DNA of 39,262 bases. Source: Fidelibacterota bacterium (GTDB lineage: Bacteria; Fidelibacterota; UBA8477; JABMPR01). The first letter of the stretch is position 1. Each line of letters starts with the position of its first letter. Of this stretch, positions 7,159 through 35,552 are shown one piece after another. The stretch lies in contig JABMQQ010000208.1 in the NCBI GenBank assembly GCA_013202495.1, positions 1 through 39,262 on the forward strand, given 5' to 3'. Under the pieces are notes generated by a model. It did not search any database, was not told the origin of the DNA, and saw nothing but the letters and a program-made list of their open reading frames with translations. The translations under genes and the position numbers were made by a program.

Positions 7159-7194
7159 ATTTGCCCCATACCAATAATTTTATTAGTAGCTCTA

Positions 7195-7335
7195 GATATC
7201 AACGCCAACTTTAAATGAAGAAAGTTACAGCTTTAAATGAAACGTTTGATATCAACGCTATTATATTTGCTCTGCCAGTTTATCGACTGGCCAGATTTAA
7301 ACGGCTTTTAAACAGTCATTAATTGATAATTAATG
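7195..7335. repeat. Left-end repeat region of the putative transposon
   Basis: This 3' flank of the cargo operon holds several structures. GATATCAACGC occurs directly repeated at 7195 and 7248. CTTTAAATGAAG at 7209 has a near copy at 7231, 22 bases away. An imperfect hairpin (TCTGCCAGT with ACTGGCCAGA) lies near 7271-7295. TTTAAACGG and TTTAAACAG lie at about 7297-7315. A perfect inverted repeat, CATTAATT with AATTAATG, occupies 7317-7335. The CTTTAAATGAAG pair recurs inverted near 37.38 kb. Transposase binding sites are the simplest reading. Confidence 0.5.
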
Positions 7336-7391
7336 GACCCATTTATATTCAAGTATCAGCACAATTAAGGAACAATTATTTCCAAGTTCAA

Positions 7392-10300
7392 TTATACTTC
7401 ATGGATTTGAATTTCTCCGATACCTTTAATTTTATTCGCCTCTTCCACTATCCGCCTGTGGTGAGTAAATAATATCACTTGGTTCTTTTTTGATAAAGTA
7501 GCTAAGACATTGAGAGTCGCTTTGGATCTGTCATCATCAAAGTTGATAAGGATATCATCTACAATAAAGGGTAAGGGCTCGCTAGTTTCTATACGCGATT
7601 CAATGGTCGCAAGTCTCAGAGCAAGGTAGAGCTGGTCGCAGGTTCCATCACTCATGCCTTCCACCGATACACGAGAATCATCGGGCCGTATGCCTATTAG
7701 GATGGGATTGCCTTTATCATCCATGTCAGCACGCAGACCTGCGAATGAATCAAGGGTCAGCTTAGAAAAGAATTTAGAGGCCAATTGTAGAACCGGATCT
7801 TGATGTTCTTCACGATAGCGCTCAATTTCATCCTTCAGCACCTTGGTAGCCAACTTAATCTTTGTATACTGATCAACAAGACGTTGTATTCTTGCAGCAA
7901 CCTGCTCCATTTTCTCAGCCGCAACAGCTGCCTGACCACTCCCATCCATAAACTGTAACTCCTTGGTTTCTTCACCGATTAGCTTTAAGGCATTTGAAAT
8001 ACTAGGATTAAGTTCCTCTTCAATCTGTCTATTGAGAGAAGCGATTTGGCTGGGTAATTCATCAACAATAACTGCCTCGGATTGGTGCTTAATTTCTGCT
8101 ATAGGAAACCCCTCGCTCACTTTTGCCAGAGAAGATTTAGCATCGGATATCTTCTCATGTAGTCGCTGATATTCAGCAGATTTCCGAATGGCTTCAGCTA
8201 GATCTTCTCTTTCGTCTTTCTGGGCAATTGCTAGTAACTTTTGCATCCGGCCATCTGAACTCAGCAGGGTTTTTTCAGCATCCTCGATTTCAGAAGTTAG
8301 AGCTTCTATTTCCTCATAATTTTTCTTTAAAATTTCATTATCCTGCTTGGTCTTCTCAAGCATGGCCTGCAATTGCAGAACGACCTGATCTGGCGGAATA
8401 TTCTCTAAACTAAGGGCAGTTTGCTTCAATAAACTCTGCACATCTGCATTGAACTTCTCAACATCACGATCCATCCCATCCATCCGGCTTTGAAACTCTC
8501 TTACCTTTTCAAGCTTATCAAAACAGTCGCCAATGGCTTCAAGAAGATCGAGTGCTTCACTTGGAGAGATCTGATCCTCAAGTTTCAAGCCGGTTAAAGC
8601 TTTATCCCATTCCACCTGCCACTCAATTTTGGCTCTCTCAGCCTCTTCCTGCTCACTTTGGAACTTGTTCAACTCACTTTGGACCGAAGCCAGCTTATCG
8701 GTTAACTTCTCGAACTCTGTATTATGGAATCTGATATCATCTAAAATCTTTTCAGCAAAGACCATAATTGGTGTCAATTCTAAGCCAGAATATTCCTCGC
8801 TTTCCCCTAGAGATTTGAGCTCGGCAATAAGAGTTTTCCTGTATTGTTGCCTGATCTTGTCTTTTCCTGAAGCCTCGCGTTCCTTACGGGAATGCTCTTT
8901 TACCTTGAACTGTAGTTTGTCGATATCTGGCAGCCATGAGAGCATTTCCTTTGGAGTACGCGGTGTTATCTTAGTAGGTTCCCATTCAGCCAGCCACTTG
9001 GCTTGTGTTTCCTCTTCTCGAGCTGCTAATTCCACCTTGTGCTGAACAATATTTTGGCTTGTTTCTTCAAGACTTTCGATTTTGGCGCGTAATGATGCCA
9101 TTTTGGCAACCCGTCGGGCTTCCCGTCGCAAGCGGTCAGCGATTGTATCTGCTTGTTCCACCTTCTTTTCATATGCATCATGGATGGGCTGTCCTGGCTC
9201 ATATTCTTCAGCTTCTTTGGAAACATCATCGCCATCGACCCATTGCCTACGCAAGAGTCTCCATCCATCCTGCCGTTTTTTGCGAGATTTATCTAGCTCT
9301 TGCTCTGTGGGAACCTCACCACCGTATATCACTTCATTGTTGTCCGCCTTAGCAATCTTTAGCTCCGTTTCTGCTTTATGGCGATCGTTTTTCAATTGTT
9401 GTGCCTCGATATCAAGCTCACTGTAAATCGTTTCGTAGCGCCTCACAGTTTCCAGTAACGGAGGAGCCAATTCCAAAAAACTATCTAGGTCCCACGTTGA
9501 CAATCCTAATCTCTTTAGTTCAACGAGGCTGCTCTTTTTTCCTATTCCAATCTCGCGGGACATCTCCTCTATTTGATGGTCGATATCACCAGCTTTTCGG
9601 ATAAGTGTAATAGCCTTTTCCAGCCCGCCACTTTCTCTCCTGACCGCCTGACCTGATAAAGTTTTGACAATTTTTGCATGCTCTTTTTTCGCTATGTTAA
9701 TCTGCTTCCGTGTATGTGATGCCTGCTCGTTTAAACTTATAAATTTGGAACTCAAGTCCTGTATAGTTCTCTTTTTGCCAAACACGGGACGCAAAGATTC
9801 AGCATCTTTTAGTTCCAACCCCGGTCGAATATTTTCGATAAGTGCTCTTGCAGCATGGCGATGAGCGATCCGCATTCCATCTAATTTTAGCAGATCTTTC
9901 TGGTCTTTACGATACCTGTCAAGGCGCTGATGCAAGTCTCCTATGGTTTCTGCATGGTCAAGCAGGCCTTGGTTAACTGAGATGCTCAGCTTCTTATGTT
10001 GGAGTTTCTCTAACCTTGATTTGTCTTTTTCTACCTGCAGTTTGATCTCACGAATCTGTTGCTCAACTTCACGGAGCTGTTCAGGAAACTCTAAAGGCAA
10101 CACGACCACATCCCCTAAATCTTGTTGCTGTTCCTGTAGATCTGCAAGTTCCGCCAATTCTGGAATAGCTTTATTTAATCGAGCAAGTCGTTGTAATTCA
10201 GCACTAGTCTGTCTTATTTTTTCCTCAAGTCTCTCATGATCTGCTTCAGCGGTCTGGAGGAGTTTCTGGTGTTCTCTCCATTTACTAGGAAGAAGGCTTG

Positions 10301-10895
10301 ACTCTCTTACAATCCTCTTATGGTTTTTATACTCATTAATGGCCTGGTTTATCAGCTGCTTGCTACCTCGATCTCTAAAAAGTTCATCCGCTTCTACTTC
10401 AAGGGTATCTAATATCTTTTTAAGAGAAGAAATACCTGTGCCAGCGGCAAACAGGGCTTGACCTAATTGACCCTTTTGTGCGAGGATATCTTCACCGCCT
10501 GCCACTAGAGTTCCATGGTCGATACAATAAAGTGATTCAAATAGAGCAGGTTCAACACCATGTAAAAAAATCGCAAGATCACCAGGATCCAAGGGATTAC
10601 CATCAAGGTCTAAAAGATCCGCCTTTCTTTTCTTGCGACGATTGAAGACGAGTTCCTGCCCTGTAGCTCCTTCAATGTGGCCGCCGATCATGAGTCGATC
10701 ATTGGCATGCAGAAAATTATCTGAAGTTCGTTCAGGGAAACCATATAATAGAGCCTTCAGCGCTCGAAGTGTAGTACTCTTGCCTGCCTCGTTGAGACCA
10801 AATATGATGTGGAGACCCGGTTCCTGCGTATCAAACTCAATAGTGTGCTCAGTAAAGAGTCCAAAGGCTTTCAGATTAAGATGCTTTATCCTCAA
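7392..10895 (-). CDS. YhaN-like (SbcC/Rad50-type) coiled-coil ATPase
   Basis: A 1167-residue SMC-like ATPase. The N-terminal half-domain has Walker A GLNEAGKS (33-40) and motifs typical of the Bacillus YhaN group (LFAAGTGISSLK; FRDRGSKQLINQ). A long, mostly coiled-coil middle follows. The C-terminal half-domain has the signature region GMSDGTCDQLYLALRLA, Walker B PFIVDDILINFDDD and a switch His (FTHHRR). I see no CxxC zinc hook, which separates it from classical SbcC/Rad50. It would partner the phosphoesterase encoded just upstream, together acting on DNA ends or foreign DNA. The start is a TTG that overlaps the partner stop codon (TTGA), with AAGGAG 8 bases before it, so the two proteins are translationally coupled. 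It is the last gene of the cargo operon. Confidence 0.88.
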   Translation of the reverse strand: MRIKHLNLKAFGLFTEHTIEFDTQEPGLHIIFGLNEAGKSTTLRALKALLYGFPERTSDNFLHANDRLMIGGHIEGATGQELVFNRRKKRKADLLDLDGNPLDPGDLAIFLHGVEPALFESLYCIDHGTLVAGGEDILAQKGQLGQALFAAGTGISSLKKILDTLEVEADELFRDRGSKQLINQAINEYKNHKRIVRESSLLPSKWREHQKLLQTAEADHERLEEKIRQTSAELQRLARLNKAIPELAELADLQEQQQDLGDVVVLPLEFPEQLREVEQQIREIKLQVEKDKSRLEKLQHKKLSISVNQGLLDHAETIGDLHQRLDRYRKDQKDLLKLDGMRIAHRHAARALIENIRPGLELKDAESLRPVFGKKRTIQDLSSKFISLNEQASHTRKQINIAKKEHAKIVKTLSGQAVRRESGGLEKAITLIRKAGDIDHQIEEMSREIGIGKKSSLVELKRLGLSTWDLDSFLELAPPLLETVRRYETIYSELDIEAQQLKNDRHKAETELKIAKADNNEVIYGGEVPTEQELDKSRKKRQDGWRLLRRQWVDGDDVSKEAEEYEPGQPIHDAYEKKVEQADTIADRLRREARRVAKMASLRAKIESLEETSQNIVQHKVELAAREEETQAKWLAEWEPTKITPRTPKEMLSWLPDIDKLQFKVKEHSRKEREASGKDKIRQQYRKTLIAELKSLGESEEYSGLELTPIMVFAEKILDDIRFHNTEFEKLTDKLASVQSELNKFQSEQEEAERAKIEWQVEWDKALTGLKLEDQISPSEALDLLEAIGDCFDKLEKVREFQSRMDGMDRDVEKFNADVQSLLKQTALSLENIPPDQVVLQLQAMLEKTKQDNEILKKNYEEIEALTSEIEDAEKTLLSSDGRMQKLLAIAQKDEREDLAEAIRKSAEYQRLHEKISDAKSSLAKVSEGFPIAEIKHQSEAVIVDELPSQIASLNRQIEEELNPSISNALKLIGEETKELQFMDGSGQAAVAAEKMEQVAARIQRLVDQYTKIKLATKVLKDEIERYREEHQDPVLQLASKFFSKLTLDSFAGLRADMDDKGNPILIGIRPDDSRVSVEGMSDGTCDQLYLALRLATIESRIETSEPLPFIVDDILINFDDDRSKATLNVLATLSKKNQVILFTHHRRIVEEANKIKGIGEIQIHEV

Positions 10896-12151
10896 CTTTC
10901 ATTCTCCTTACTTTGTATCAGTCTGGCGAGGAGAAGTTCTTTGACCTCTTCCTGCAACTCGCTAGAGTTTTCAGGATGACTCTCCTGCATAGAATTCACA
11001 TCAAGCAGCTCCGCTGGAAGTTTTAAATTTAGCTTGGCTATGTCCGGAACCAGTGTTGATAGTGTACCCTCTTCGAGGTCAAGGCTTTCAACAGCCTGCA
11101 ACAGACTTGTTAGAGGGCTGTCTTTACCGTCAATCTCTTCAAAGCTCGACATTCGATTTGTTCTAAGAATCACCTTTTCAAGCCATACAGCATCAAGGCT
11201 GGCAGCAATACTCCGGATCTCTTCGGTTATTTGTATTGAGCGCGCATGTAGTTCCGCATGTAGAAGACAGCGCCCCTCCAGATGTAACCGTAGCGCTAAA
11301 GTTTTTCCAGATACCAAGTCTCGCTCTTTTTCAATTGCAGACCGGACAATCTTATACATATGCTCTTTAGTATCGCATTCTGATAGATCTACTCGGCAGA
11401 TAGACCAGCGGAGCACATCAAGCACCATCTCTTTGACCTCAGCTATCATACCATCTTCCACAGTCACCAAGGTAGCGCCTTTGGCTCCTGTCTCTTTGAT
11501 ATGTCTACCCTGAATATTTCCAGGGAAAAGTATCAGTGGATCTTCTGAAACAACTTCACGTTTGTGAATATGTCCTAGAGCCCAGTAATCATATCCCTTG
11601 GATTCAAGGTCATTAAGGGAGCACGGTGCATAATTTTCATGCCCCTCCCGGCCAGTTAGTGACGTATGGAGTACCCCTATGTTAAAAAAGTTTGGGTTAT
11701 ATTGAGGATACTGCGAGGCCAAATTTGCTATCACAGCACGAGAAGAATAGCTTTGTCCATGGATTGCAACGTTAATGGAATCAAGTATTTCTGTTTGGGG
11801 TTCCTTCGAAGAGAAAAGAGAAACATTGTCAGGCAGGGGCATTGTCTTAGTGATCTGACTGGCAGCATCATGGTTACCAGAAGCAATGTAAACCTTAATC
11901 CCTGCCTTTTTGAGTCGACCCATCGTAGAGGCAAAATAGATACCGGTATTAGAATCCTTCCAATCCCCATCATAAAGATCTCCGGCGATGAGGATAAAAT
12001 TAACCTCTTCCTCAATTGCTAGATCGATCAGGTTTTCGAATGCCCGCCTTGTCGCACCACGGATCTGCTCAACAGGAGCATATTCATACGCTTCTAGTCC
12101 CTTAAGTGGACTATCAAGGTGGATGTCTGCTGTGTGGATAAATTTGATCAT
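10892..12151 (-). CDS. YhaO-like (SbcD/Mre11-type) DNA exonuclease
   Basis: A 419-residue calcineurin-like phosphoesterase with the metal-binding set of the Mre11/SbcD fold. Visible motifs are HTADIHLDSP (D9, H11), AGDLYDGD (57-63), SGNHDAAS (91-98), a later HTS motif and WALGHIHKRE. The remaining third is the capping and ATPase-contact region. The family cuts DNA ends or hairpins with an SbcC/YhaN-type ATPase, which is encoded directly downstream in a 4-base overlap. A weak AAGG ribosome site precedes its ATG. The gene begins 39 bases after the OLD-family gene on the same strand. In this setting the pair probably serves as the nuclease arm of a defence operon, rather than as the housekeeping repair enzyme. 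Confidence 0.9.
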   Translation of the reverse strand: MIKFIHTADIHLDSPLKGLEAYEYAPVEQIRGATRRAFENLIDLAIEEEVNFILIAGDLYDGDWKDSNTGIYFASTMGRLKKAGIKVYIASGNHDAASQITKTMPLPDNVSLFSSKEPQTEILDSINVAIHGQSYSSRAVIANLASQYPQYNPNFFNIGVLHTSLTGREGHENYAPCSLNDLESKGYDYWALGHIHKREVVSEDPLILFPGNIQGRHIKETGAKGATLVTVEDGMIAEVKEMVLDVLRWSICRVDLSECDTKEHMYKIVRSAIEKERDLVSGKTLALRLHLEGRCLLHAELHARSIQITEEIRSIAASLDAVWLEKVILRTNRMSSFEEIDGKDSPLTSLLQAVESLDLEEGTLSTLVPDIAKLNLKLPAELLDVNSMQESHPENSSELQEEVKELLLARLIQSKENES

Positions 12152-12190
12152 AGAATTAACCTTATACTAGTTTGTCTACTTAATACAACG

Positions 12191-14110
12191 TTACTTCACT
12201 GAACGAGCATATTTCATTAGTTGTTTAGATGCCAGTTTTAGGAGAGTCATGCTGAAGCCTTCTGCAAGTAACATTTCCACAGTTGCGGTGACTACGAGAG
12301 GATTCTTTCTCCGTACACCATTATTAAGAATAAATTTATTTCGCGCCGCTTTTTCGTGGGTATCCCAATTTGCATCTCCAGTTTCTTGAATAATTTCGTC
12401 CATGATTCTAGTTTTCCACATGACGAAATTATTTTCGAGGATGTTTGTCTCCTGGATAGGTTCAAGACTCGAAGACAATAAATTAAGCAGACATTGATTA
12501 TCCCTGATTTGGTTGTTTAGAGAATCCTTACGATCGCAATCGCCATCGAAAACTGTGAACGTTGGTAAACCTAGCCCTTTTGCTATGGCCAAGGGTCGGC
12601 TCATATTGGTCTTTCCATCGCAAACGACAAAGTGACAGCCAAGTCTTCGAAATTCATCCCATTGATCGGTACAACGCAAATACGTTGAGATAAAAGCCAC
12701 ATCTTCCGCACCCTCAACCAAAACAGGGATGGTGCAAAAAAATAATTCAGACTGCGATGGTTGCATAATTTGCTCAACGGCGGCCATCACCTCCGTTGGC
12801 TTCTGTGGCTGATCTCCAAGCGCCTGTGATAACATATCCGCAAGATCAGTGTATTTGACTTGTGATACGCTACTACCCTTAATTGTCGGTCGAGTTCTAA
12901 CCAATCGTATATTCTCGTAACCACGACTACTAACAAAATACGGGCTGTGGGTGGTAATAATAATTTGTGAATCGTGAGTAGAAAGGATCTCTAAAAGAGA
13001 AGCTAAATGCTTTGCCTGTGGAGGGTGTTGATACAACTCAGGCTCTTCAAATCCCAATAGGAGTGTCGGCAAGTCACCTTCACCCGTTGTGGCTAAAACT
13101 CTAAGTAATGCAATCAAAAACGAACGTTGCATTCCATGTCCTGACCGTACTAGTTCACCTAAGAAGTCACCTTCACCAATCTTCGCCCTGGCATAGGGTG
13201 AAGCAAGTGATACTGATTTTTGATCATCGAAATGCCATGCTAGCTCTACCTTAGCTCCAGAATGGGACCAATTCTTCAACTGAGATTGAATTTTTTCACT
13301 AACATCTTTCAGTACTAAATCTTGATCGCTAATAAGTTTCAGATATTGTGAGTTTGTCTGTTGGCGGAGAGCTTCTATAGGTTCAGCAAAGTCTATTTCG
13401 GATCGAATGGTTCTCTGGAGTAAATTGCCTAATGCACTATTACGTTGTTCATCTTGTTCTTCCGTTGGATCCTTTACCGCCGGTAAATAAACCCAGCTAA
13501 TATGTTTCTTGAGTAAATTGGCACCTTTACTCCAGCCATAAAATTGAGTGGGGCTTTCTATGTCTTCGCATAGCTCTAAATTATTTTCTTCGTACTCCCG
13601 TAATGCTGAACGCATGGCGTCTTTTGTGGTAACTAATGGTAGTTCAGGAAATGATGATCTTATACCGGCATAAATTCCTTTTAGCTCTGCGGCCAAAGCC
13701 TTTGCCTCCTCAGCTTGGAAATATGGAACAAAATCGTTCATGATTTTTCGGATACCATATTGTTTTACTTCAGCTCTTAGAGATGTTGGATTCCATTCAG
13801 CTTTGACAGTAACTGCCAATTGACCATGACGAGCGTATGCTTTTAGATCCTCTTTTGCTAGCTCAGACAATTCCTCAAATATGCATATAATTTCGATCGG
13901 TTGGCTGGTATCTCGATTGTGGAAATCTTCCTCTTGAAGATTCACAACATCAGAAGGAGCTTCTGAATTCCTAAAAAAGATATTAAGGGCCATCAATACC
14001 GTTGATTTTCCAGCACCATTGGGTCCAACAAAACATGAATATCGATCAATTGCAATTTCTTGGTTTTTGAAACATCTGTAATTCTTGATGGTGATTTTTA
14101 ATAGACGCAT
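12191..14110 (-). CDS. OLD-family ATP-dependent endonuclease (AAA ATPase plus TOPRIM)
   Basis: A 639-residue protein with an ABC-type ATPase in the first two thirds: Walker A GPNGAGKS (29-36), GHGMQRSFLIALL as signature region, LLGFEEPELYQHPP as Walker B, and ITTHSPYFVS as the switch. A TOPRIM nuclease domain follows, seen in PVLVEGAEDVAFI and, after it, TVFDGDCDRKD. This is the architecture of P2 Old and of GajA-like nucleases. No UvrD-like gajB lies next to it, so a Gabija call is not supported. It has its own strong ribosome site (AAGGAG, 8 bases before ATG) and gaps of 172 and 39 bases on either side, so it may be a later insertion into the cargo operon. Confidence 0.85.
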   Translation of the reverse strand: MRLLKITIKNYRCFKNQEIAIDRYSCFVGPNGAGKSTVLMALNIFFRNSEAPSDVVNLQEEDFHNRDTSQPIEIICIFEELSELAKEDLKAYARHGQLAVTVKAEWNPTSLRAEVKQYGIRKIMNDFVPYFQAEEAKALAAELKGIYAGIRSSFPELPLVTTKDAMRSALREYEENNLELCEDIESPTQFYGWSKGANLLKKHISWVYLPAVKDPTEEQDEQRNSALGNLLQRTIRSEIDFAEPIEALRQQTNSQYLKLISDQDLVLKDVSEKIQSQLKNWSHSGAKVELAWHFDDQKSVSLASPYARAKIGEGDFLGELVRSGHGMQRSFLIALLRVLATTGEGDLPTLLLGFEEPELYQHPPQAKHLASLLEILSTHDSQIIITTHSPYFVSSRGYENIRLVRTRPTIKGSSVSQVKYTDLADMLSQALGDQPQKPTEVMAAVEQIMQPSQSELFFCTIPVLVEGAEDVAFISTYLRCTDQWDEFRRLGCHFVVCDGKTNMSRPLAIAKGLGLPTFTVFDGDCDRKDSLNNQIRDNQCLLNLLSSSLEPIQETNILENNFVMWKTRIMDEIIQETGDANWDTHEKAARNKFILNNGVRRKNPLVVTATVEMLLAEGFSMTLLKLASKQLMKYARSVK

Positions 14111-14283
14111 TCAACCTACTCCTTATTGGCTATAACTCACTTCGCTTGAGCTGACCTCAATATCAATTGTTGTTGCACTTCCCCTTTTTTAATCCGAACA
14201 AACGCTTCCATATACCCATATGACACTCCTATTAAGAATTATTCCTCTGGAGATTATCGTCTGCATGAAAGTTGAATTTCATT

Positions 14284-15159
14284 TTAATGAGTTCTTCGCG
14301 AATGCATTACCAATTCCTTGAAATCACTTTCTTTGATAATGCGAATACTTTGACCAGTTGAAATTAGATACTCCGCTTTTCGATGCTTAGAGCTCTTCTC
14401 ATTACCAGCTAATCTGGAAACATCCTGATCCCCAACAACTAACAGACTTGTTCTTTTATTCACTCCTGAAGCCACCGTACAGCCAATATTTGCAGCTAAT
14501 TCTACAGCCTCCCTACGAGGAATTTCTAATGATCCCGTAAAGACCAAGACTTCACCAAACAATACACCGTCATGATTTCCCTCTTTGGTCATTGCAGAGT
14601 GATATGGTCTCTTTGTTGGATCTATTGGATTTTTAATTCGTTCAAGCCAAGCATTTAGATCTAAACCTGTAGTTTCAATAGCTGCTAAAAGAATCTGACC
14701 TGATGCTTTTGCATCCTCTAGAGCATCATGATGTTTAAATTCATACCCAATTTTCTCGCATAGGTTGACAAGCCCGTATCCACTCCACCTACAATCTTCC
14801 CATGTTCTTCTGGCCACTTTTGCTGAATCAAGCCAAACGCCACTAAATTCCTCGAGATCGTATTTTGTTAAAGCTCGTCCTATTGACACACGGTCAAAGT
14901 GTGTGTGGCAAACACAAACTGAATTATTTAAATAGGTACCCAAGACTTTAGCTACTTCAGGGAGAGTAGGACAACCAATCACATCCTTTTCACTAATCCC
15001 ATGTATATCAACATTGATAGGATTAAAATAATCTTCAGGATCTATTAAAGATGACCATTCATCTGTTATTTTCCCATCCACATATTTGGCAATACCTATC
15101 TGGCAGATAGAAGCCATATCAGCATTCGCAGTCTCTACATCAATTGCTATGAAATTCAA
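14284..15159 (-). CDS. DnaQ-type 3'-5' exonuclease fused to a BRCT domain
   Basis: A 291-residue two-domain protein. Residues 1-170 form a DEDDh exonuclease: FIAIDVETAN gives the first D and E, HTHFDR the second D region, and HHDALEDAKA the H and last D. Residues about 199-285 form a BRCT domain (GEVLVFTGSLEIPRREAVELA ... TSLLVVGDQD), as in DNA ligase and epsilon-like proteins that bind nicks or phosphorylated partners. Translation starts at a TTG that overlaps the stop of the 130-aa gene (TTGA), with GAGG 9 bases upstream. It probably trims DNA in the same pathway as the helicase and ATPase upstream. It is too short to be a polymerase III subunit set, and no polymerase is nearby. Confidence 0.85.
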   Translation of the reverse strand: MNFIAIDVETANADMASICQIGIAKYVDGKITDEWSSLIDPEDYFNPINVDIHGISEKDVIGCPTLPEVAKVLGTYLNNSVCVCHTHFDRVSIGRALTKYDLEEFSGVWLDSAKVARRTWEDCRWSGYGLVNLCEKIGYEFKHHDALEDAKASGQILLAAIETTGLDLNAWLERIKNPIDPTKRPYHSAMTKEGNHDGVLFGEVLVFTGSLEIPRREAVELAANIGCTVASGVNKRTSLLVVGDQDVSRLAGNEKSSKHRKAEYLISTGQSIRIIKESDFKELVMHSRRTH

Positions 15160-15548
15160 GCCACGTGATCCTCAAGATCAGGCTTTACAGACCTTATTAT
15201 ATCTTTAGCATAGATGACTCTCATTCCAGTTTTAGTACAAATGAGTTCAGTTTTTTTTGATACATCAATATCTAAATCTTCACAACGTAGTCCCTGCCAT
15301 TGTGCCAAATAATATAGCGATCCATATTTTTCGTTCTTTTGTGTAGGCTTCTCTGTACCGCCTTTCCAGTTAAGAACCGGCAGTTCCCCTTTCTTTGCCC
15401 TCTCAGCCAATTCAGGCTCTTTCCTGCTTAATTTTCTTCCAACCTCCCAAGAGATTATCAAGCCCTTGTCTGGTCCTTTCCAGCGCTCTTCCCAGGAAAG
15501 TTTCCCTCGTATTGGTTTCTGTACTGATCGAAAAATTGTTTCAGTCAT
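15156..15548 (-). CDS. Uncharacterised 130-residue protein of the defence operon
   Basis: I do not recognise this family. The protein is soluble, rich in Lys, Glu and Trp, with a Trp-containing centre (VLNWKGGTEKPTQ) and SLYYLAQWQG, and no signal peptide or membrane segment. AGAGGT lies six bases before its ATG. It begins 54 bases after the helicase gene and overlaps the exonuclease-BRCT gene by 4 bases, so the last two are translationally coupled. The coupling suggests a partner or adaptor of the exonuclease. Confidence 0.7.
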   Translation of the reverse strand: MTETIFRSVQKPIRGKLSWEERWKGPDKGLIISWEVGRKLSRKEPELAERAKKGELPVLNWKGGTEKPTQKNEKYGSLYYLAQWQGLRCEDLDIDVSKKTELICTKTGMRVIYAKDIIRSVKPDLEDHVA

Positions 15549-15602
15549 GTTGGTACCTCTTAGATGACATAAACATTATTGATGTATGCAGCCTCAAATT
15601 TA

Positions 15603-17852
15603 TTAGCTATTCAATTGCTCATTATGTTGCAAAGTCCTAATTGTTCCAGAAACATTGAGATATCTTGAGGCATAATCAGCGCGGAGTAAATCCTCCCCAA
15701 GATATTGATCATATTTTTCGTTTACCTTGTTGGTAACATTAAAGGCTAACTCTTGCCCATTTATGAGCACCTCAGCTTGAATTGACCTAAGATGATTAAT
15801 CAAATCTTCCGCATCACAATCAGTGACAGTTATAGACAGGCCATCTATCGTTACTTTTAGGCCCTTAGATTTGAGCATAAGGGCAAGAGTATTCTGAATT
15901 CGATCACCCTTCCAAAGAAACACTAAAGAATCTTTACCGGATTTATAGATAATCGATTTTGATAATTGAAATTCTCTAAAGTATTTACGAGCCTCTTCAA
16001 GCAATTCGACTGAAGTCCTATCCAGAAAACGTGGGATCTCCTCAGACATATAAACTCTTCTCATCTCTTCACGAATTCTATCGTCTATTGATCCACCACC
16101 CCCAAGGAATTTTGGAGGTCGACCCCCTTTAGAAGCAGCAAGGTCAATTACCTTCTTCTCATTATCTACAGACATAACGACCCATCGTCTGCCTGCAAAG
16201 ATTAGATACATTCCCTCCACAAGTGGATAGGCAATTGGTAGAGTACCAAGCTGCTTGCCTTCCGCAATTAGTCGATATTCTTCAGGAGTTGAAAAAGCCG
16301 CAAAGAAACTATAGTGGTTGACTATGCGCTCTCCCATTATGTCAAGCAACAGAAGGTTATCCGATGTCTGAGTAATGAGTTCATTTGAACCTAAACCTCG
16401 GAGTAGGGATATGAACATGCTTTGATCTACTCCAGAAAACGGACCAGATTTACATAGGCATTGCCATGCTTCTGATGCCTTAACACCCCCGTATTGAGCT
16501 ATCATTGATAATATTTGTTGAACTAGGGTCGAAAGATGAAGAGCCTCTATTTTGGGTGGTTCATACCACTTTTCCAGGAGGAGATTGACCATAGCAATTG
16601 CCTGCACCATATGAGGTCGTAAGTAATCCTGAATTGGACTCCTGTCAGTTATTTCTCTCTCTTGAACATACATACGTAGAACAGCCGGGTCGTCTCTTCT
16701 CCCGGATCTACCCAGCCGCTGTCTTACTGAAGCGACTGTAAAAGGAACACCAATTTGAGCTATCGAAGAAACTGAGCCAATATCGATACCCATTTCCAGG
16801 GTGGATGTACATACCACGTTAATTGGCAAAGACTTGTCTTTTAATCGATCTTCCACATCTTCTCTTAGATCTTTTGAGATGCTACCATGATGTGGAAAGA
16901 ATTCATTTGGCAGTTTTTCAGTAACACAATAACGACGTAGAAGGTCTGCATACACCTCGACTTCTTGTCTACTGTTTGAGAAAATTAAATTGTTAGTCCC
17001 TCGTAACACTTTAAATAGATGCTTTGCTACTTCTATATAATCACCAGAGATTTTTTGGTTTTCAGTAACACTTTGATTCTTTGTTCTTACTGCATCCTGC
17101 TCAGATTCGATATATCCTCGGATTTGAAGCTTTATCTCAGGCTGGTGACTACTGGAATCAATTAGGGTAGCATTTTCTGCACCACCCTTTCTGAGAAATT
17201 CAGCTGCCATAGGCATATCTCCCAGAGTGGCGCTGAGTGCAATTCTCTTAATTTGTCTCTTTTGAATAATCTCTAGTCGATGGAGTAATGATTGAAGCTG
17301 TTTTCCACGCTCATTGCCAATAAATGAATGGAGCTCATCCACTACGGAATAACTTAAATCGTGGAATAGCATTTTCATTTTAGGTCCGTGAATAACAAAG
17401 AGTGCTTCAAGCGACTCTGGCGTGATAAGTAAAATACCAGATGGTTTATTGAGCAATTTTTTCTTCTTTGCAGCGTCCACATCTCCGTGCCAGCGGTGTA
17501 CGGGAATACCCAAATCTTCACATAGATACTCTAACCTTGAGAATTGATCATTTATCAAAGCCTTTAGTGGACCAAGGTACAGAACACGAACACTGCTATT
17601 TGGAGAATCAGCGATACTAGAGCAGATTGGAAGAAAGGCAGCTTCTGTTTTTCCTCGAGCTGTCGCTGCTGAGATTACTACATCATTCTCCGAATTAAGG
17701 ATACTATCAATTGCTTGTTCTTGTATATCATGAAGCTCATCCCACCCTTGTTGCCAAATCCATCTCTGGATCTTTGGATGGAGAAGATCAAATGAGTTCG
17801 AGGTTCTGGAATTAGAGCTTAAAGGAGGTAAGTTCATCGTCTTCCATATCAT
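15603..17852 (-). CDS. sngC: Lhr/BrxHI-like DEAD/H helicase (Shango SngC-like)
   Basis: A 749-residue superfamily 2 helicase. The Q-motif region is ELHDIQEQAI, with motif I AATARGKT (62-69), Ia GPLKALINDQ, Ib TPESLE, II DELH (172-175) and III SAT (207-209). Motifs V and VI follow as TLEMGIDIGS and RQRLGRSGRRDD. This is close to Lhr-type helicases and to BrxHI of BREX. A C-terminal extension of about 350 residues follows, containing GRRWVVM and a Gly-rich GGRPPKFLGGGGS. Its first codons overlap the end of the ATPase gene by 41 bases; the ATG at 17837 is a possible alternative start. TerB protein, BrxD-like ATPase and helicase in this order is the composition of the Shango anti-phage system, where the helicase is SngC. 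The symbol rests on that synteny. Confidence 0.82.
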   Translation of the reverse strand: MIWKTMNLPPLSSNSRTSNSFDLLHPKIQRWIWQQGWDELHDIQEQAIDSILNSENDVVISAATARGKTEAAFLPICSSIADSPNSSVRVLYLGPLKALINDQFSRLEYLCEDLGIPVHRWHGDVDAAKKKKLLNKPSGILLITPESLEALFVIHGPKMKMLFHDLSYSVVDELHSFIGNERGKQLQSLLHRLEIIQKRQIKRIALSATLGDMPMAAEFLRKGGAENATLIDSSSHQPEIKLQIRGYIESEQDAVRTKNQSVTENQKISGDYIEVAKHLFKVLRGTNNLIFSNSRQEVEVYADLLRRYCVTEKLPNEFFPHHGSISKDLREDVEDRLKDKSLPINVVCTSTLEMGIDIGSVSSIAQIGVPFTVASVRQRLGRSGRRDDPAVLRMYVQEREITDRSPIQDYLRPHMVQAIAMVNLLLEKWYEPPKIEALHLSTLVQQILSMIAQYGGVKASEAWQCLCKSGPFSGVDQSMFISLLRGLGSNELITQTSDNLLLLDIMGERIVNHYSFFAAFSTPEEYRLIAEGKQLGTLPIAYPLVEGMYLIFAGRRWVVMSVDNEKKVIDLAASKGGRPPKFLGGGGSIDDRIREEMRRVYMSEEIPRFLDRTSVELLEEARKYFREFQLSKSIIYKSGKDSLVFLWKGDRIQNTLALMLKSKGLKVTIDGLSITVTDCDAEDLINHLRSIQAEVLINGQELAFNVTNKVNEKYDQYLGEDLLRADYASRYLNVSGTIRTLQHNEQLNS

Positions 17853-19146
17853 CTAAGCTTCCTGACTCCCCATTATCCGAAAGAGGAGAAAAGTCTGGGT
17901 TGCTTTCAGTTTTGACCGAGATTCCAGAGATCAGATCATTCCATGCAACTTGCTCATTTTGTTCAAGCACAGCCATCAAGTCCACGAAGGCAGTAACTGT
18001 ATTACGGGGAGTTCGAAAATAAGCATCACCTATTTTCTTAGAACAATGTTCCATGAAGGCCTTCAAGCCATCATCAGGGAGTAAATATCCACTGGGATCC
18101 CCAAATGCATAAACATGTCTTAGTTTACCAAGGAGAACGTATATGTCTTCGGGTGATAGATTTGATAGTCGGATTACAGGTCCTGTTAAATCAACTAGCC
18201 CCTCTCTAGCAAATGTATTTTCGGTAAGACGTGATTGGAGTGCTTGATAGCTATATAAACCCTTTCGGGTATCCATGAGAAACTCAGGTGTACCACCCAG
18301 AAGAAATCCTAATCCATTGGCAGTACCTTGAAGAGAATCATTCAGAATTCGAAGAATTTGTTCGTAATTAGAATTACGTGCCCTCGTATTCGCCAGCTTG
18401 TACAAATTGACCAACTCATCGAGGCAAACCATCAAACCACTATAGCCACTCAATTTGACAAATCTGGCAAACAGTTTTATATGGTCATATACATTTGAGT
18501 CATCAATGATTGTTCTTACTCCGAGAGCAATCCTAGCATCCGTCTTTGTTGAGAACTCACCACGTAGCCACCTGATGGCACTAGATTTTAGTTCTTCATC
18601 TCCTGTATCGTATCCTCTCCAGTAAGCAGATATCACTTCAGCAAAATCATATCCCCCCACCATCTCAGATAACACTTGAAGCCTTTTTCGAATCACAATT
18701 TCAGGTGATAAACCATCCGCCCTTGATTCTTGTAAAGCAGACGTGACAAATCTTTCAATTACGCTGGGTAAAGCCTCGCCATCAGGTTTGGAACGAGTTG
18801 AGAGATTTCTCATAAGCTCTCTATATAGAGAACGAGCTTGGCCATTCGTCGCATGTAATCTTCGGTCTGGATTTAAGTCAGCATGAACCGTGACGAGCTT
18901 TTTCTCTAGAGCAATAGAGCGGATTAGATTGAGAAAGAAGGTTTTTCCAGATCCAAATTCACCAATAATAAATCTAATACCCGAGCCCCCATCTGCAATG
19001 CGTTCAACATCATTAAGAAGTGCCTTTACTTCAGGTCCTCGACCCACTTGGATATGCTTTTGTCCTGACCGTGGAACGACTCCTGCACGGAGCGATTGAA
19101 AAATGGTATCACGTACTCGTGGGCGAATTTTAAGTTTATCTGTCAT
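17812..19146 (-). CDS. sngB: BrxD-like P-loop ATPase, DUF2791 type (Shango SngB-like)
   Basis: A 444-residue AAA-type ATPase of the size of BrxD proteins. The N-terminal part includes VPRSGQKHIQVGRGPE, where many family members have a similar lead-in. Walker A is GEFGSGKT (62-69), and Walker B LMVCLDE (238-244) is followed by LVNLYKLAN. GFLLGGTPEFL, a sensor-like segment, and ENTFAREGLVDL follow. The start overlaps the TerB gene stop as ATGA, and the end overlaps the helicase gene, so the three products are made in step. In BREX type 2 the same ATPase-helicase pair is BrxD-BrxHI. Here no pglZ, pglX or brxC is present, while a TerB-domain protein is, which fits Shango better. Confidence 0.82.
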   Translation of the reverse strand: MTDKLKIRPRVRDTIFQSLRAGVVPRSGQKHIQVGRGPEVKALLNDVERIADGGSGIRFIIGEFGSGKTFFLNLIRSIALEKKLVTVHADLNPDRRLHATNGQARSLYRELMRNLSTRSKPDGEALPSVIERFVTSALQESRADGLSPEIVIRKRLQVLSEMVGGYDFAEVISAYWRGYDTGDEELKSSAIRWLRGEFSTKTDARIALGVRTIIDDSNVYDHIKLFARFVKLSGYSGLMVCLDELVNLYKLANTRARNSNYEQILRILNDSLQGTANGLGFLLGGTPEFLMDTRKGLYSYQALQSRLTENTFAREGLVDLTGPVIRLSNLSPEDIYVLLGKLRHVYAFGDPSGYLLPDDGLKAFMEHCSKKIGDAYFRTPRNTVTAFVDLMAVLEQNEQVAWNDLISGISVKTESNPDFSPLSDNGESGSLDDMEDDELTSFKL

Positions 19147-21374
19147 GAGAAATACTCCTTAACTAAATCCATCTCGACTTCAATCGGATCGTCTCCCTCT
19201 AAGAGGGGTTCATCGCAAAGTTCGTAGGCTGCATCATTCAGTATGTCTAATGCTCCATCTGGTAATAATCCATGGCGTTCTGCAAGAATTTCAAACTCAG
19301 ACCTTCTCCACTCAGATTGTTTAACCAATTCACGCAAAAGTAACGAATGGGCTGGGTCTAGCGGTCCTATTGTGTTTTCCTTCTGTTGATCACTAAGAAT
19401 AGGTACCTCTTCGGGTTCTTCTTCATCGAAAATATCCCCAAGAATTTGTGTAACTGTGGCTGTTTCCTCAAGTTTTGCCCGCACAATACTCATATCGAGG
19501 TCTACACCGTTCTTCTGTATTTGCTCTATATTAACCTCAGAAGGTACCTTGAAACCATGTTGATCATCACCAGCTTTTTGTATTGTCACTGGAGCATCCG
19601 GAATGTTACCTCCACTCATCATTGAATGGATATGTGTAAAAACCTCGTCTTCACTATATCCTAACATTGGGTACAGCTTGTTTAGGATTTTGATTTCTGA
19701 CGGATCTATGTGACCATCTGCACCTGCTACTCCGAGACAGAAAGCGGCAATTGAGCTTTTTTCACTCGCTTGCAAGGACTCAACCCTCTTCTTCATCCCG
19801 GCTAGTCCGGGTGGGTCATAAAGCAGCCAATCGAGGTGAGCTTTAATTCGTTGTTTTTCACCTTTTGATAGTTTGAGTGCTTTCTCAACGTGTGCCTCTA
19901 AATAATCACGCTCAGACTCGGCAACAGTCCCATCGATACCTGAAATTATTGCTGCAAGTCGTAATAGAACGGTGGCAGCTTGATATTCCTCTGTAGGCAC
20001 TTTAGGAGAGTTCTTCTCTAAGGAAAAGATGATAGCCTTGCCAATTGCTTTTAGATTTGTCCCTCCAAATCTTGGATCGGGTTCGAGGCCATGCCCAAAT
20101 TTTTCAAGTAAGTGAGCTAAGGCGACAGACTCTTTCTTTGAAAGTCCCGCAACATCAGTATCAGTCCAAAGTGCTATTAGCTCGGATGCATCAACAGCTG
20201 TTTGCTGATTATCTCCAAGCTTGTCCGATATCCAGTTCTTGATACTATCTGCAGCAGGATTGGTTTTTGTTTCAATCAGTTCTAGTGGCAATAAACCAAA
20301 AGCCTCTAAACTCCCCTCTTGGTCTGGATTCCTGCCAAGATATCTACTCATTGGATCTAACAAGTCAGTACAATCCTCAATGATTTTTCTGAGCTTATTG
20401 ACTGGTCCTGTCACCCGACTAATATCTGGAAGGTCACCACATGGAATTTTTACTTGGCCAATTCCGTGGCTAGCAGGGTGAATGCTAATATTCAACCTTG
20501 ATTTATTAGGTTTGAGCGTCATCCCATTCCCATATTTAGCGATGTACCTGATATTGAAAAGAGCTTTCAGATCATCGCCGCATCTAGTTGCTGGTGTTCT
20601 TAGTCTTGTATCAGGATGAAGCAGGATCCAAGAATATGCCCATGCTGATGATATTGGTTTCCCTTCAGAGATAAGTTGACCTATTCCCATCCGAAGATTT
20701 ATTGGCAATTCCCATGATGTTCTCTCAATCGGTGGTGGAAAATTGTATTGCCGCTCTGGGCTCTGCATTATCTGGACAGCCTCAAGAAATCTATTCGCGT
20801 ATCCGTTGAAAGACCAATTTGAACCATATATATCAAGCAGACGCTTTACTTCAAACGTAATCTCAGAAATTTCGGACACCGCTTGTTCAGAATTACGCGT
20901 GTCAACAAAAACACGTCGCTCCAGTCCATAGAAGAATAAAAATACATATCCAATACTGTAATTTGGATCACTTCGTCCACTGCTTAACCAATTTATATAG
21001 GCTGCACGACTAGATGGATCAATATCAGCATAACTTGGCCAATATGACATTCCAGAGCCATCTATATCGGGATTATTGAAATTAACGTTCAATTTAGGAT
21101 TGATTAGCGAGGGTTCAACACTAGAGTAACCACCTGCTGGTTGAAGGTAATTGCCAACATATAGCATGCCACCAGGTATATGCTCACCTGAAATGTTCAC
21201 AGGTTTGCCTGATGATACCCAAACAGAGTCAGGGTCAACATTTGCATACCTCTCACGATAGAAGGGCGAGTCCTCAGTTGATACTGAAACCCGTACACGG
21301 GGGCTTGAGTCCATTGAATTTCTTATGAGCAGTATAATTACGATAATTACACCAACGAACAGTAGAACTTCCAT
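19143..21374 (-). CDS. sngA: Membrane-anchored TerB-domain protein (Shango SngA-like)
   Basis: A 743-residue protein. One transmembrane helix lies at the extreme N-terminus (MEVLLFVGVIIVIILLI), followed by a TerB-N-type region (about 60-290, with YWPSYADIDPSSRAAYINWL). A middle region follows with two acidic TerB-like helical blocks (LRLAAIISGIDGTVAESE and CLGVAGADGHIDPSEI, about 475-600). A TerB-C-type end (about 640-743) closes the protein. TerB domains are named after tellurite-resistance clusters and act as metal- or membrane-linked modules. A good ribosome site (AAGGGG) lies 7 bases before the ATG. With the coupled ATPase and helicase it forms a Shango-like set, and the anchor suggests the complex works at the inner membrane, perhaps where phage DNA enters. 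Confidence 0.8.
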   Translation of the reverse strand: MEVLLFVGVIIVIILLIRNSMDSSPRVRVSVSTEDSPFYRERYANVDPDSVWVSSGKPVNISGEHIPGGMLYVGNYLQPAGGYSSVEPSLINPKLNVNFNNPDIDGSGMSYWPSYADIDPSSRAAYINWLSSGRSDPNYSIGYVFLFFYGLERRVFVDTRNSEQAVSEISEITFEVKRLLDIYGSNWSFNGYANRFLEAVQIMQSPERQYNFPPPIERTSWELPINLRMGIGQLISEGKPISSAWAYSWILLHPDTRLRTPATRCGDDLKALFNIRYIAKYGNGMTLKPNKSRLNISIHPASHGIGQVKIPCGDLPDISRVTGPVNKLRKIIEDCTDLLDPMSRYLGRNPDQEGSLEAFGLLPLELIETKTNPAADSIKNWISDKLGDNQQTAVDASELIALWTDTDVAGLSKKESVALAHLLEKFGHGLEPDPRFGGTNLKAIGKAIIFSLEKNSPKVPTEEYQAATVLLRLAAIISGIDGTVAESERDYLEAHVEKALKLSKGEKQRIKAHLDWLLYDPPGLAGMKKRVESLQASEKSSIAAFCLGVAGADGHIDPSEIKILNKLYPMLGYSEDEVFTHIHSMMSGGNIPDAPVTIQKAGDDQHGFKVPSEVNIEQIQKNGVDLDMSIVRAKLEETATVTQILGDIFDEEEPEEVPILSDQQKENTIGPLDPAHSLLLRELVKQSEWRRSEFEILAERHGLLPDGALDILNDAAYELCDEPLLEGDDPIEVEMDLVKEYFS

Positions 21375-21500
21375 AGGATTACCCCTTAGTACCTTGTGCT
21401 AGTTACTCATTTTCGATTTGTTTAACCAAACAACATTTGAGATTCGAGACCGTCAATTTTCGTTGTTTACCCTGCTCTTGGTATTTGTTAGAGGAGTGTT

Positions 21501-22136
21501 TTATTTTTTCCTCTCTCGAATCATACTTTCCATATGCTCTAATACTTGCGCCCCTATCATCAAACTCTCTAAGACCTCTACTGGAGATGGTTCCTTCTGA
21601 AGTACCCCTCCTAATTCACCAACTGTCGATGCGATAAATGCACTTGAAAGACCACCAAGTATTTCTTCAGCACCAAGGAATGATGCACCAGACAAGGTCG
21701 AAGCAAACGAGGCCATTTTGACCATCGATTTTGTTAATTCTTCCGCATTTCCTTGATTAGAAGTAAAAAGGTTCTTGTCGATACTGTCTTTTGCAAAAAG
21801 TTGTATCTCATCCCAATGATATCTGATTATTACGTTCCTATGCGACAGATAATTGCCTGAACTGAACATTGCGGGAGACCTAAGCTGAACCTGTAAAAAG
21901 ACATAAATAGAATCACCCTGATGTTGTCTGTTTAGATTTACCAGCCAAAGAGAGAAGTCCTCGCCAACATCTTCAATAGAAGCCCAACTAGAAGATCTAA
22001 TTGAATGCAGAACACCTTGTTTAGCTATCTGCAGTCTATGTTTCTCCTCCAACTGAGTCTTAACATCAAAGCTGTATTGACCAAAAGTTATTGATACAGT
22101 CAGAAACCCGATGAAGATAACTTTTACGAAGTTCAA
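21501..22136 (-). CDS. Exported protein of unknown function in the cargo operon
   Basis: About 211 residues with an N-terminal signal sequence (NFVKVIFIGFLTVSITFG) and a probable cleavage before QYSFDV. I do not recognise the family. A charged middle (EEKHRLQIAKQG) is followed by a small-residue and hydrophobic stretch (ASTLSGASFLGAEEILGGLS). AAGGAG at 22144-22149 is seven bases from a TTG at 22134-22136 but only one base from the in-frame GTG at 22140-22142, so the TTG is the better start. It lies just upstream of the TerB gene on the same strand with gaps of about 125 bases on both sides. An exported product beside a membrane-anchored TerB protein hints at an envelope role. Confidence 0.6.
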   Translation of the reverse strand: MNFVKVIFIGFLTVSITFGQYSFDVKTQLEEKHRLQIAKQGVLHSIRSSSWASIEDVGEDFSLWLVNLNRQHQGDSIYVFLQVQLRSPAMFSSGNYLSHRNVIIRYHWDEIQLFAKDSIDKNLFTSNQGNAEELTKSMVKMASFASTLSGASFLGAEEILGGLSSAFIASTVGELGGVLQKEPSPVEVLESLMIGAQVLEHMESMIRERKK

Positions 22137-22266
22137 AATCACACTCCTTCTACGACCATAGACCTGAGCCGCCTTTCATCAAAGCATCACTATGTAAATT
22201 CATTGTATCCTTCCACATTATTTTCCTAGACCAATTCCTTGCAGGTGATTACGCTCTAAGCCTTTG

Positions 22267-23085
22267 CTAGAGTCCATATCGTCTCTTCAATAAGTCATGA
22301 GCATGGAGTAATGCAGACCAATGCCCCAACCTACCGAGTGACCAAAGGAGAAGACCATATCGCTCATCCGTAAGTTCACTCACTACAAGTTTTTTTGCGC
22401 TTTTCTGGGGTATCTTGATTTTATTTATAGCTCTTAAATATGTTGCCGTTATTTTGTCGGTCGAGTCCAAATGACTCACATGCTTCATATCGATTGCGGC
22501 CAGTTTTTTGTATACAGGAATTTTATATTTTGTTGTTTCAACTATGGCCAGGATCTTCTCTAGATGGACTCCAATAATTTTCTCATCTAAATAAGACACC
22601 ACTAGTGTGTTTGCTTCTGGGTCTGAGTACTTTTCCCATGCTTCCATCAGTAATTCTCGATAAGGATCAGACCAGTTCTGCTTAAGGTAAGCGAATGCTT
22701 TACGGCGCATACCAACATGCTTATTTGTGAGTAAATATATCAAAATCTCTTTCACAGTCTCATCCGAAAATACATTTAATATTCTGTCAAGACATGTACG
22801 GATAGCACCGCGCTTTTTAGCTAATGCAGATTCATATCGATCTATTAATATTGGCCCCAATTTGTGATATTTATCCCTAGCGACATTTTCTGAAACATCT
22901 CTCTCCATTTTGTTAAGTAGAGCACGCCGAACGTTTGCATCCTGTTCATCACATACAGATAACATCTGAATCACTTCATCCGGATCCAAACAATTGACTA
23001 GAGCTGGAACGAGTGAATACTCGAACACTGATGTTCTGCTAGATGCATATTCCATAATAATTTTTGTGCGATCAACATTTTTCAT
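22267..23085 (-). CDS. Alpha-helical, HEAT-repeat-like protein of unknown function
   Basis: A 272-residue, probably all-helical protein. It has recurring helix pairs of the ARM/HEAT kind (for example DPDEVIQMLSVCDEQDANVRRALLNKM and VKEILIYLLTNKHVGMRRKAFAYLKQ). There is no catalytic motif, signal or membrane segment. It is the first gene of the minus-strand cargo block and has an extended -10 promoter about 90 bases upstream. No clear ribosome site precedes its ATG. HEAT-like proteins in defence operons often act as scaffolds or sensors, but that role is inferred from position only. Confidence 0.6.
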   Translation of the reverse strand: MKNVDRTKIIMEYASSRTSVFEYSLVPALVNCLDPDEVIQMLSVCDEQDANVRRALLNKMERDVSENVARDKYHKLGPILIDRYESALAKKRGAIRTCLDRILNVFSDETVKEILIYLLTNKHVGMRRKAFAYLKQNWSDPYRELLMEAWEKYSDPEANTLVVSYLDEKIIGVHLEKILAIVETTKYKIPVYKKLAAIDMKHVSHLDSTDKITATYLRAINKIKIPQKSAKKLVVSELTDERYGLLLWSLGRLGHWSALLHAHDLLKRRYGL

Positions 23086-23174
23086 ATGTGCAGCTAACTA
23101 TAAATATAACGTAATGCATAACATCTGTGTCCAAATGAAATTATCATTTTGAATATCCTCTATCTAAATTACTT

Positions 23175-23183
23175 ATTATAACA
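23175..23183 (-). promoter_or_regulatory. Extended -10 promoter for the cargo operon
   Basis: On the minus strand the sequence TGTTATAAT is a perfect extended -10 element, about 90 bases upstream of the first cargo gene. The -35 is weak, as is common for extended -10 promoters. It would drive the HEAT-like gene and possibly the whole defence block. Confidence 0.4.
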
Positions 23184-23420
23184 AAAAGACTCGGCTTTAG
23201 GTTGTAGATACATTTCATTCTACAAAAGGGATATTTTGAAATCTTGGGACCCCCCAGTCCACATCTATCGTCAATTATTGATATCAAGATATTCATTTCA
23301 CTAAAAACGACAATCGTTATTTATTTATAATGAGCATTTATGAAAGTTAGGGTAATGAATTCGGTTTTGATCTATAAGCTTGATGTGAGTAAATGGAGTT
23401 AATTCCAAGAATCGTGAATT

Positions 23421-23516
23421 TCGGCTTTTAAAACGGTTATTTGGGATTAGTGGTAAGAGCATACCACTTTAGAATACTTAAACGTTTTTAAACAGTGTTT
23501 GAACGTTTTTAAACGG
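23421..23516. repeat. Direct-repeat array AACGTTTTTAAACRG between transposition module and cargo
   Basis: The gap 23086-23573 holds no credible gene. Within it, AACGTTTTTAAACAG (23481) and AACGTTTTTAAACGG (23502) are direct repeats exactly 21 bases apart, with a looser copy (CTTTTAAAACGG) near 23424. A closely similar sequence, TTTAAACGGTGTTCAAAC, lies near 37130. Two-turn spacing suggests cooperative protein binding. Candidates are the transposase, its stand-alone DNA-binding paralogue or the repressor. Confidence 0.5.
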
Positions 23517-23573
23517 TATGGGGTGGTGACAAATAACCCCATCATGAATCAGAAAGCGATTTCGCCGGAAATC

Positions 23574-24592: not shown

Positions 24593-24629
24593 TGGTTCTC
24601 CCCACTAACTAGAGTTGTTGCTGCTAGAC

Positions 24630-28278: not shown

Positions 28279-28285
28279 TTCGTTG

Positions 28286-29131: not shown

Positions 29132-29132
29132 T

Positions 29133-31192: not shown

Positions 31193-31203
31193 TATTATTA
31201 TTT

Positions 31204-35541: not shown

Positions 35542-35552
35542 GTAAAAAGAAA

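What the first reader, a model, noticed from the sequence alone, without database searches (positions are those of the whole stretch)
7392..23085. Shango-like core extended by four or five nuclease-linked genes in one operon
Shango is described as three genes (TerB protein, ATPase, helicase). Here the trio is followed in the same direction by a 130-aa unknown, an exonuclease-BRCT protein, an OLD nuclease and a YhaO/YhaN pair, and preceded by an exported protein and a HEAT-like protein. Start/stop overlaps link SngA-B, B-C, 130aa-Exo and YhaO-YhaN. Such coupling suggests a larger machine: membrane sensor, motor, helicase and DNA-end nucleases. This is the best candidate here for an undescribed multi-gene defence system.
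Basis: partly seen in the sequence, partly recalled or inferred. Interest (0 to 1): 0.88.

Follow-up and report, generated by a model that had tools for sequence, protein, structure and literature searches.

The report
Shango defence operon inside Mu-like transposon
The gene row is real: it is a known bacterial anti-phage system (Shango) with added DNA-cutting genes, carried as cargo on a 30-kb mobile element descended from a Mu-like virus. Of the added genes only the exonuclease is independently tied to Shango in other bacteria; the others look like separate passengers.

Summary
In detail: SngA, SngB, SngC, a 130-aa orphan, an exonuclease-BRCT protein, an OLD nuclease and YhaO-YhaN run in one direction with the stated overlaps (4, 41, 4, 4 bp). 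The reading "one larger Shango machine" is only partly supported. (1) A same-genus genome holds the empty site. The operon is cargo of a 30,220-bp insertion (7197-37416) with a 5-bp target duplication (CTAGA), mirrored end repeats (TTTAAATGAA, found only at the ends) and Mu-type MuA/MuB. Its nearest relatives are Mu-like phages, but it has no recognisable virion genes. (2) Among 70 other Shango loci with enough downstream sequence, none has the 130-aa gene or YhaO-YhaN in the trio's operon. YhaN lies within about 13 kb in two, convergently. OLD follows in two or three. (3) The DnaQ-type exonuclease does recur: fused to the helicase SngC in five actinobacterial loci and one Rhodobacter plasmid, and adjacent in two more, on at least four separate lines. 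Most likely: Shango plus an exonuclease partner (helicase-exonuclease, like MrfA-MrfB), travelling with independent OLD, YhaON and PARIS-like modules on a Mu-derived defence transposon. New variant of a known kind.

The parts
7197..37416 (.). 30,220-bp Mu-like transposon (whole insertion)
   Evidence: Empty site in same-genus genome G227: window 7196 joins L101:7608 and window 37417 joins L101:7604
7192..7196 (+). target-site duplication CTAGA, left copy
   Evidence: Read against the empty site in L101
37417..37421 (+). target-site duplication CTAGA, right copy
   Evidence: Read against the empty site in L101
7210..7241 (+). left end: two TTTAAATGAA sites (7210, 7232), first one 13 bp from the end
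   Evidence: paired pattern unique among 19 genomes of the genus
37300..37403 (-). right end: three inverted TTTAAATGAA sites (37300, 37374, 37394), outermost one 13 bp from the end
   Evidence: the 10-mer occurs nowhere else in the window
22267..23085 (-). 272-aa all-helical (HEAT-like) orphan
   Evidence: No Pfam/PADLOC; low-confidence helical repeat model; no plasmid relative
21501..22142 (-). 213-aa predicted exported orphan
   Evidence: Signal-like N-terminus; no relatives found
19143..21374 (-). SngA, membrane-anchored TerB protein
   Evidence: Pfam TerB_N/TerB/TerB_C; PADLOC SngA; N-terminal hydrophobic helix
17812..19146 (-). SngB, BrxC/D-type (ORC/Cdc6-like) AAA+ ATPase
   Evidence: PADLOC SngB 606 bits; tree
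15603..17852 (-). SngC, SF2 DEAD/DEAH helicase
   Evidence: PADLOC SngC 944 bits; nearest solved sequences YprA/MrfA and Lhr-type helicases
15156..15548 (-). 130-aa orphan translationally coupled to Exo
   Evidence: No relatives in plasmids, viral contigs or fetched loci; no usable model
14284..15159 (-). DEDDh (DnaQ-type) exonuclease with C-terminal BRCT
   Evidence: catalytic motifs aligned
12191..14110 (-). OLD-family ATPase-TOPRIM nuclease
10892..12151 (-). YhaO, Mre11/SbcD-like phosphoesterase
7392..10895 (-). YhaN, Rad50/SbcC-like ATPase
   Evidence: Pfam AAA_27 240 bits
26049..27635 (-). MuA-like DDE transposase
   Evidence: Pfam DDE_2, Mu-transpos_C; phrog_310; 57-66% to phage contigs; D168, D232, E289 invariant
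25567..26049 (-). stand-alone paralogue of the MuA N-terminal DNA-binding domain (46%)
24663..25616 (-). MuB-like ATPase
   Evidence: Pfam AAA_22, Phage-MuB_C; 61-63% to phage contigs
24075..24449 (-). 124-aa Mu gp16-position gene, conserved in related phages
   Evidence: 62% in L114-L116
23574..24078 (-). two small phage-conserved genes (23878-24078 and 23574-23825), the last ones before the defence cargo
   Evidence: Matches in L115/L117
27829..31044 (-). other Mu-like early genes (139, 281, 123, 164, 150 and 70 aa)
   Evidence: Matches to L112, L114-L117 for the 139-, 281-, 150- and 70-aa genes
31204..32052 (+). repressor-like multi-HTH protein, divergent from the transposition operon
32180..36981 (+). 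right cargo: DUF5677, AriAB (PARIS)-like ATPase 33724-35541, 206-aa unknown, GNAT

Best explanation
A 30.2-kb Mu-like transposable element, derived from a Mu-like phage whose virion genes are missing, inserted into the host chromosome and carries defence cargo on both sides of its transposition genes. The left cargo is a Shango system (membrane-anchored TerB protein SngA, ORC-like ATPase SngB, helicase SngC) with a DEDDh exonuclease accessory, joined by an OLD nuclease and a YhaO-YhaN (Mre11-Rad50-like) pair that are separate modules transcribed in the same direction. Proposed working: SngB loads SngC on invading or replicating phage DNA, SngC unwinds it and the exonuclease digests the exposed 3' strand, much as MrfA (helicase) and MrfB (DEDDh exonuclease) pair in Bacillus repair; OLD and YhaON act on nicks, ends or hairpins on their own account. 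Shown: the insertion, its ends, the target duplication, the gene families, conserved MuA catalytic residues, the recurrence of SngC-exonuclease fusion and adjacency. Inferred: the order of action, the loading step, anti-phage activity in this host, and that the element still moves.
For: Empty site and 5-bp duplication in G227. Five copies of TTTAAATGAA, all within about 120 bp of the two ends and mirror-oriented, the outermost 13 bp from each end; the paired pattern is unique in 19 genomes. MuA/MuB with 57-66% relatives in phage contigs that carry terminase, portal or head protease, none of which is found in the window. SngB absent from 244 other genomes of the phylum, YhaN absent from 18 other genomes of the genus. 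SngC-exonuclease fusion in L002, L003, L030, L035, L153 and L123; adjacent exonuclease in L039 and L079; the label needs 6 changes on the SngB tree. YhaO is elsewhere or absent in 49 of 50 Shango genomes, and YhaO-YhaN occurs as a free pair on plasmids.
Against: The window's exonuclease is closest to a free-standing plasmid copy (56%, L122), not to a Shango-linked one, so here it could be a chance neighbour. YhaN lies near Shango in two unrelated genomes and is their only copy, more than pure chance suggests. No phage assay of this operon exists. The phage origin rests on a few incomplete relatives.
Confidence: 0.72

Rival explanations
1. One integrated machine: SngABC, the 130-aa protein, Exo-BRCT, OLD and YhaON act together as membrane sensor, motor, helicase and end nucleases.
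For: Same strand, 4-bp couplings, intact motifs; the exonuclease link recurs; YhaN near Shango in G249 and G250, where it is the only copy; other Shango loci carry AddAB-like nuclease-helicase genes.
Against: No other Shango locus has this set; the 130-aa gene has no relatives found; OLD and YhaON are mostly unlinked to Shango; gaps of 54 and 173 bp separate the blocks.
Confidence: 0.12
2. A phage satellite: the element keeps Mu early genes and is packaged by a related Mu-like helper phage, with defence genes that exclude rivals.
For: Retains repressor, transposase and early genes in phage order but no virion genes; a related Mu-like element lies in G227:C21.
Against: No packaging or capsid-redirecting gene recognised; the helper is unknown; G227's element is cut by a contig end.
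Confidence: 0.1
3. Plain defence island on a transposon: Shango, Exo, OLD, YhaON and PARIS-like genes accumulated independently, and the exonuclease here has no functional tie to Shango.
For: The window exonuclease is closest to free-standing copies near other defence or repair genes; OLD genes are common defence genes.
Against: Fusions of the same enzyme class to SngC in actinobacteria and Rhodobacter.
Confidence: 0.25

Closest known systems
Shango (SngABC; Millman et al. 2022, Johnson et al. 2023, PMC10250203)
   Same: All three proteins, order and overlaps; PADLOC matches of 308, 606 and 944 bits; SngB falls in the Shango clade
   Different: Described as three genes; here followed by an exonuclease, OLD and YhaON, and carried on a Mu-like transposon
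Mu-like transposable phages
   Same: MuA, MuB, repressor, early gene order, 5-bp target duplication, repeated end sites
   Different: No recognisable virion genes; defence cargo follows the early region; ends begin TAT rather than Mu's TGT (the Mu comparison is from memory)
Tn7-like transposons with defence cargo (Benler et al. 2021, PMC8649781)
   Same: Mobile element with DDE transposase, ATPase, repeated end sites, 5-bp duplication and defence cargo
   Different: MuA/MuB of phage type; no TnsA/D/E-like genes among the Pfam matches
MrfA-MrfB (YprA-YprB) helicase-exonuclease (PMC11194089, PMC12458937)
   Same: SF2 helicase with a DEDDh exonuclease, adjacent or fused; YprA/MrfA is the best solved-sequence match of SngC
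   Different: Repair of mitomycin damage; no TerB protein or SngB-type ATPase
SbcCD / Mre11-Rad50 (YhaO-YhaN branch)
   Same: Phosphoesterase plus long coiled-coil ATPase, intact motifs
   Different: YhaO-YhaN branch rather than SbcCD; here cargo of a transposon

Membership tests
Shango | TerB-domain SngA | tested here: met
   TerB_N, TerB, TerB_C; PADLOC SngA 6.9e-92
Shango | SngB ATPase, distinct from BrxD | tested here: met
   606 against 149 bits for BrxD; in the 99-row clade apart from 16 BrxD-like rows
Shango | SngC helicase | tested here: met
   944 bits
Shango | anti-phage activity | not testable with these tools
   Needs a phage challenge; known for the P. aeruginosa trio (PMC10250203)
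Extended Shango operon as a conserved system | 130-aa gene, OLD and YhaON recur beside the trio | tested here: not met
   0 of 70 loci with the 130-aa gene or YhaO-YhaN in the trio's operon; OLD after SngC in 2-3
Shango-exonuclease variant | DEDDh exonuclease fused or adjacent in several lineages | tested here: met
   6 fusions and 2 adjacent genes; 6 label changes on the tree
Mu-like transposon | MuA-type DDE transposase and MuB | tested here: met
Mu-like transposon | defined ends with repeated sites and 5-bp target duplication | tested here: met
Complete Mu-like phage | terminase, portal, head and tail genes | tested here: not met
   None by Pfam nor by tblastn of related phage frames
Type 2 BREX | PglX, PglZ, BrxC, PglW | tested here: not met
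   No such Pfam match in the window apart from SngB's own BrxC/D domain

The most novel reading that the evidence does not exclude
Shango has a modular nuclease arm: the SngABC core recruits interchangeable DNA-degrading partners (a DEDDh exonuclease fused to SngC or beside it, AddAB-like nuclease-helicases, possibly Mre11-Rad50-like YhaON). The window is a fully loaded version moved by a Mu-derived transposon that lost its virion genes and carries immunity genes instead.
Probability: 0.3. Interest if true: 0.75.

Novelty: new variant of a known kind. Interest (0 to 1): 0.55.

Why it matters
The literature held here describes Shango's parts and activity but no mechanism for it. Repeated fusion of SngC to a DnaQ-type exonuclease points to the likely chemistry (unwind, then digest the 3' strand) and gives a direct test. 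The mapped element also shows a Mu-like backbone serving as a defence-island carrier, comparable to Tn7-like carriers, with ends and empty site precise enough to test mobility.

Tried and rejected
Conserved extended Shango: rejected for the 130-aa gene and YhaON. A first reading that the BRCT part was fused to SngC was wrong: the fused part is the exonuclease (residues 1-85 of the window protein). Many actinobacterial SngB-profile hits proved to be BrxD-like (about 42%, separate clade, no SngA match), so they were not counted as Shango. Folding the 130-aa protein gave nothing. Relatives of the 130-, 213- and 272-aa proteins: none found. Other copies of the element by its end pattern: none in the genus. 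Promoter and terminator scan: no excess over shuffles. No paper in the held library was found that describes Shango with an exonuclease.
Full report
Observation. Overlaps of 4, 41, 4 and 4 bp join SngA-B, B-C, 130aa-Exo and YhaO-N; the joins SngC-130aa (54 bp), Exo-OLD (173 bp) and 213aa-SngA (126 bp) are looser. Catalytic motifs read intact in the sequence: SngB GEFGSGKT, SngC DELH, Exo DVET with the aligned DEDDh motifs, OLD GPNGAGKST and TOPRIM LVEG, YhaO GNHD/GHIH, YhaN GLNEAGKST.

A transposon frames the operon. The left flank (1-7196) is syntenic with same-genus genomes. In G227 the two flanks meet: window 7196 corresponds to L101:7608 and window 37417 to L101:7604, so 7197-37416 (30,220 bp) is an insertion with a 5-bp duplication, CTAGA. 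Both ends carry TTTAAATGAA repeats facing inward as mirror images: 7210 and 7232 on the left, 37394, 37374 and 37300 on the right, the outermost 13 bp from each end; the 10-mer occurs nowhere else in the window and the paired pattern nowhere else in 19 genomes of the genus. MuA and MuB lie in the middle. Their closest relatives (MuA 57-66%, MuB 61-63%, the gp16-position gene 62%) are in IMG/VR contigs L114-L116; L114 and L115 were checked and encode terminase with a head maturation protease or portal protein. None of those virion genes is found in the window. The conserved phage genes stop at 23574 and the defence genes begin at 23085. A second cargo arm (32180-36981) holds an AriAB/PARIS-like ATPase. 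The finding is therefore cargo of a Mu-derived defence transposon.

Horizontal arrival. SngB occurs in 1 of 245 genomes of the phylum and YhaN in 1 of 19 of the genus. The window's SngB sits, weakly supported, near sequences from Myxococcota, Acidobacteriota and Nitrospirota assemblies.

Is the extension conserved? Eighty named genomic loci and six plasmid loci were scanned with the window proteins. Of these, 70 hold at least 2.5 kb beyond the trio and 32 have a codirectional gene next, of mixed families: UvrD helicases and PD-(D/E)XK nucleases, OLD-type ATPases, transporters and others. UvrD (AddA-like) genes lie beside the trio in L007, L041 and L048. None of the 70 carries the 130-aa gene or YhaO-YhaN in the trio's operon. 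YhaN lies within about 13 kb of the trio, convergent, in L042 (G249, with YhaO 44%, L167) and L079 (G250), and each genome has that one copy. Of 50 Shango genomes 8 have a YhaO relative, and only G249's lies near Shango within the sequence held. OLD-like proteins follow SngC in L076 and L073, weakly in L083. YhaO-YhaN also stands alone as a pair on plasmids.

The exonuclease is different. The window's exonuclease residues match C-terminal extensions of SngC in L003, L030, L035 and L153; reading the frames shows SngC fused to a DnaQ-type domain there and in L002, and in the Rhodobacter xanthinilyticus plasmid L123 (open frame of 929 codons). Separate exonuclease genes lie about 0.6 kb after SngC in L039 and directly before SngA in L079. 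On the SngB tree the label needs 6 changes, and the exonucleases themselves fall in at least four lines. Caveats: the window copy is closest to a free-standing plasmid exonuclease (56%), and the profile used for counting was trained on the linked copies, so its low background (one other hit in 2.03 Mb) is optimistic.

Mechanism. Known for Shango: anti-phage activity of the trio (PMC10250203); no mechanism was found in the held library. For the related BREX pair, BrxD has been proposed to load the BrxHI helicase (PMC12839542). SngC's best solved match is YprA/MrfA, whose partner MrfB is a 3'-5' DEDDh exonuclease (PMC11194089), adjacent or fused in that family (PMC12458937). I infer that SngB loads SngC and that Exo digests the strand exposed by SngC; OLD, YhaON and the PARIS-like gene are most simply separate defences on the same vehicle.

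Verdict. Observation confirmed; interpretation partly supported. Known kind (Shango), with a recurrent exonuclease variant that I did not find described in the library held, on a Mu-like carrier.

Noticed in passing
window 33724-35541: AriAB (fused PARIS)-like ATPase (PADLOC 1e-58) with DUF5677, a 206-aa unknown and GNAT in the element's right arm: a second defence cargo.
   Followed up: partly
window 25567-26049: Stand-alone copy of the MuA N-terminal DNA-binding domain (46% to MuA) encoded between MuA and MuB; possible end-site competitor or regulator.
   Followed up: no
L007 (Phaeobacter plasmid), L048 (Omnitrophota), L041 (Phormidesmis): UvrD (AddA-like) helicase genes beside Shango trios in three unrelated phyla, with a PD-(D/E)XK (AddB-like) gene in L007: another recurrent nuclease-helicase partner.
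   Followed up: partly
L150-L152, L154-L166: PADLOC's SngB profile matches BrxD-like ATPases at E below 1e-160; family-only calls of Shango in actinobacteria may be false.
   Followed up: partly
window 1655-2209: Non-coding stretch whose two ends (about 1657-1740 and 2130-2203) recur many times in this genome and its genus: a dispersed repeat or MITE-like family.
   Followed up: no
G227:C21 (L112): A related Mu-like element in the sister genome, cut at a contig end inside MuA; its cargo side was not resolved.
   Followed up: partly
window 27829-28248: 139-aa protein whose two halves both match the single 98-106 aa phage homologue: internal duplication.
   Followed up: no
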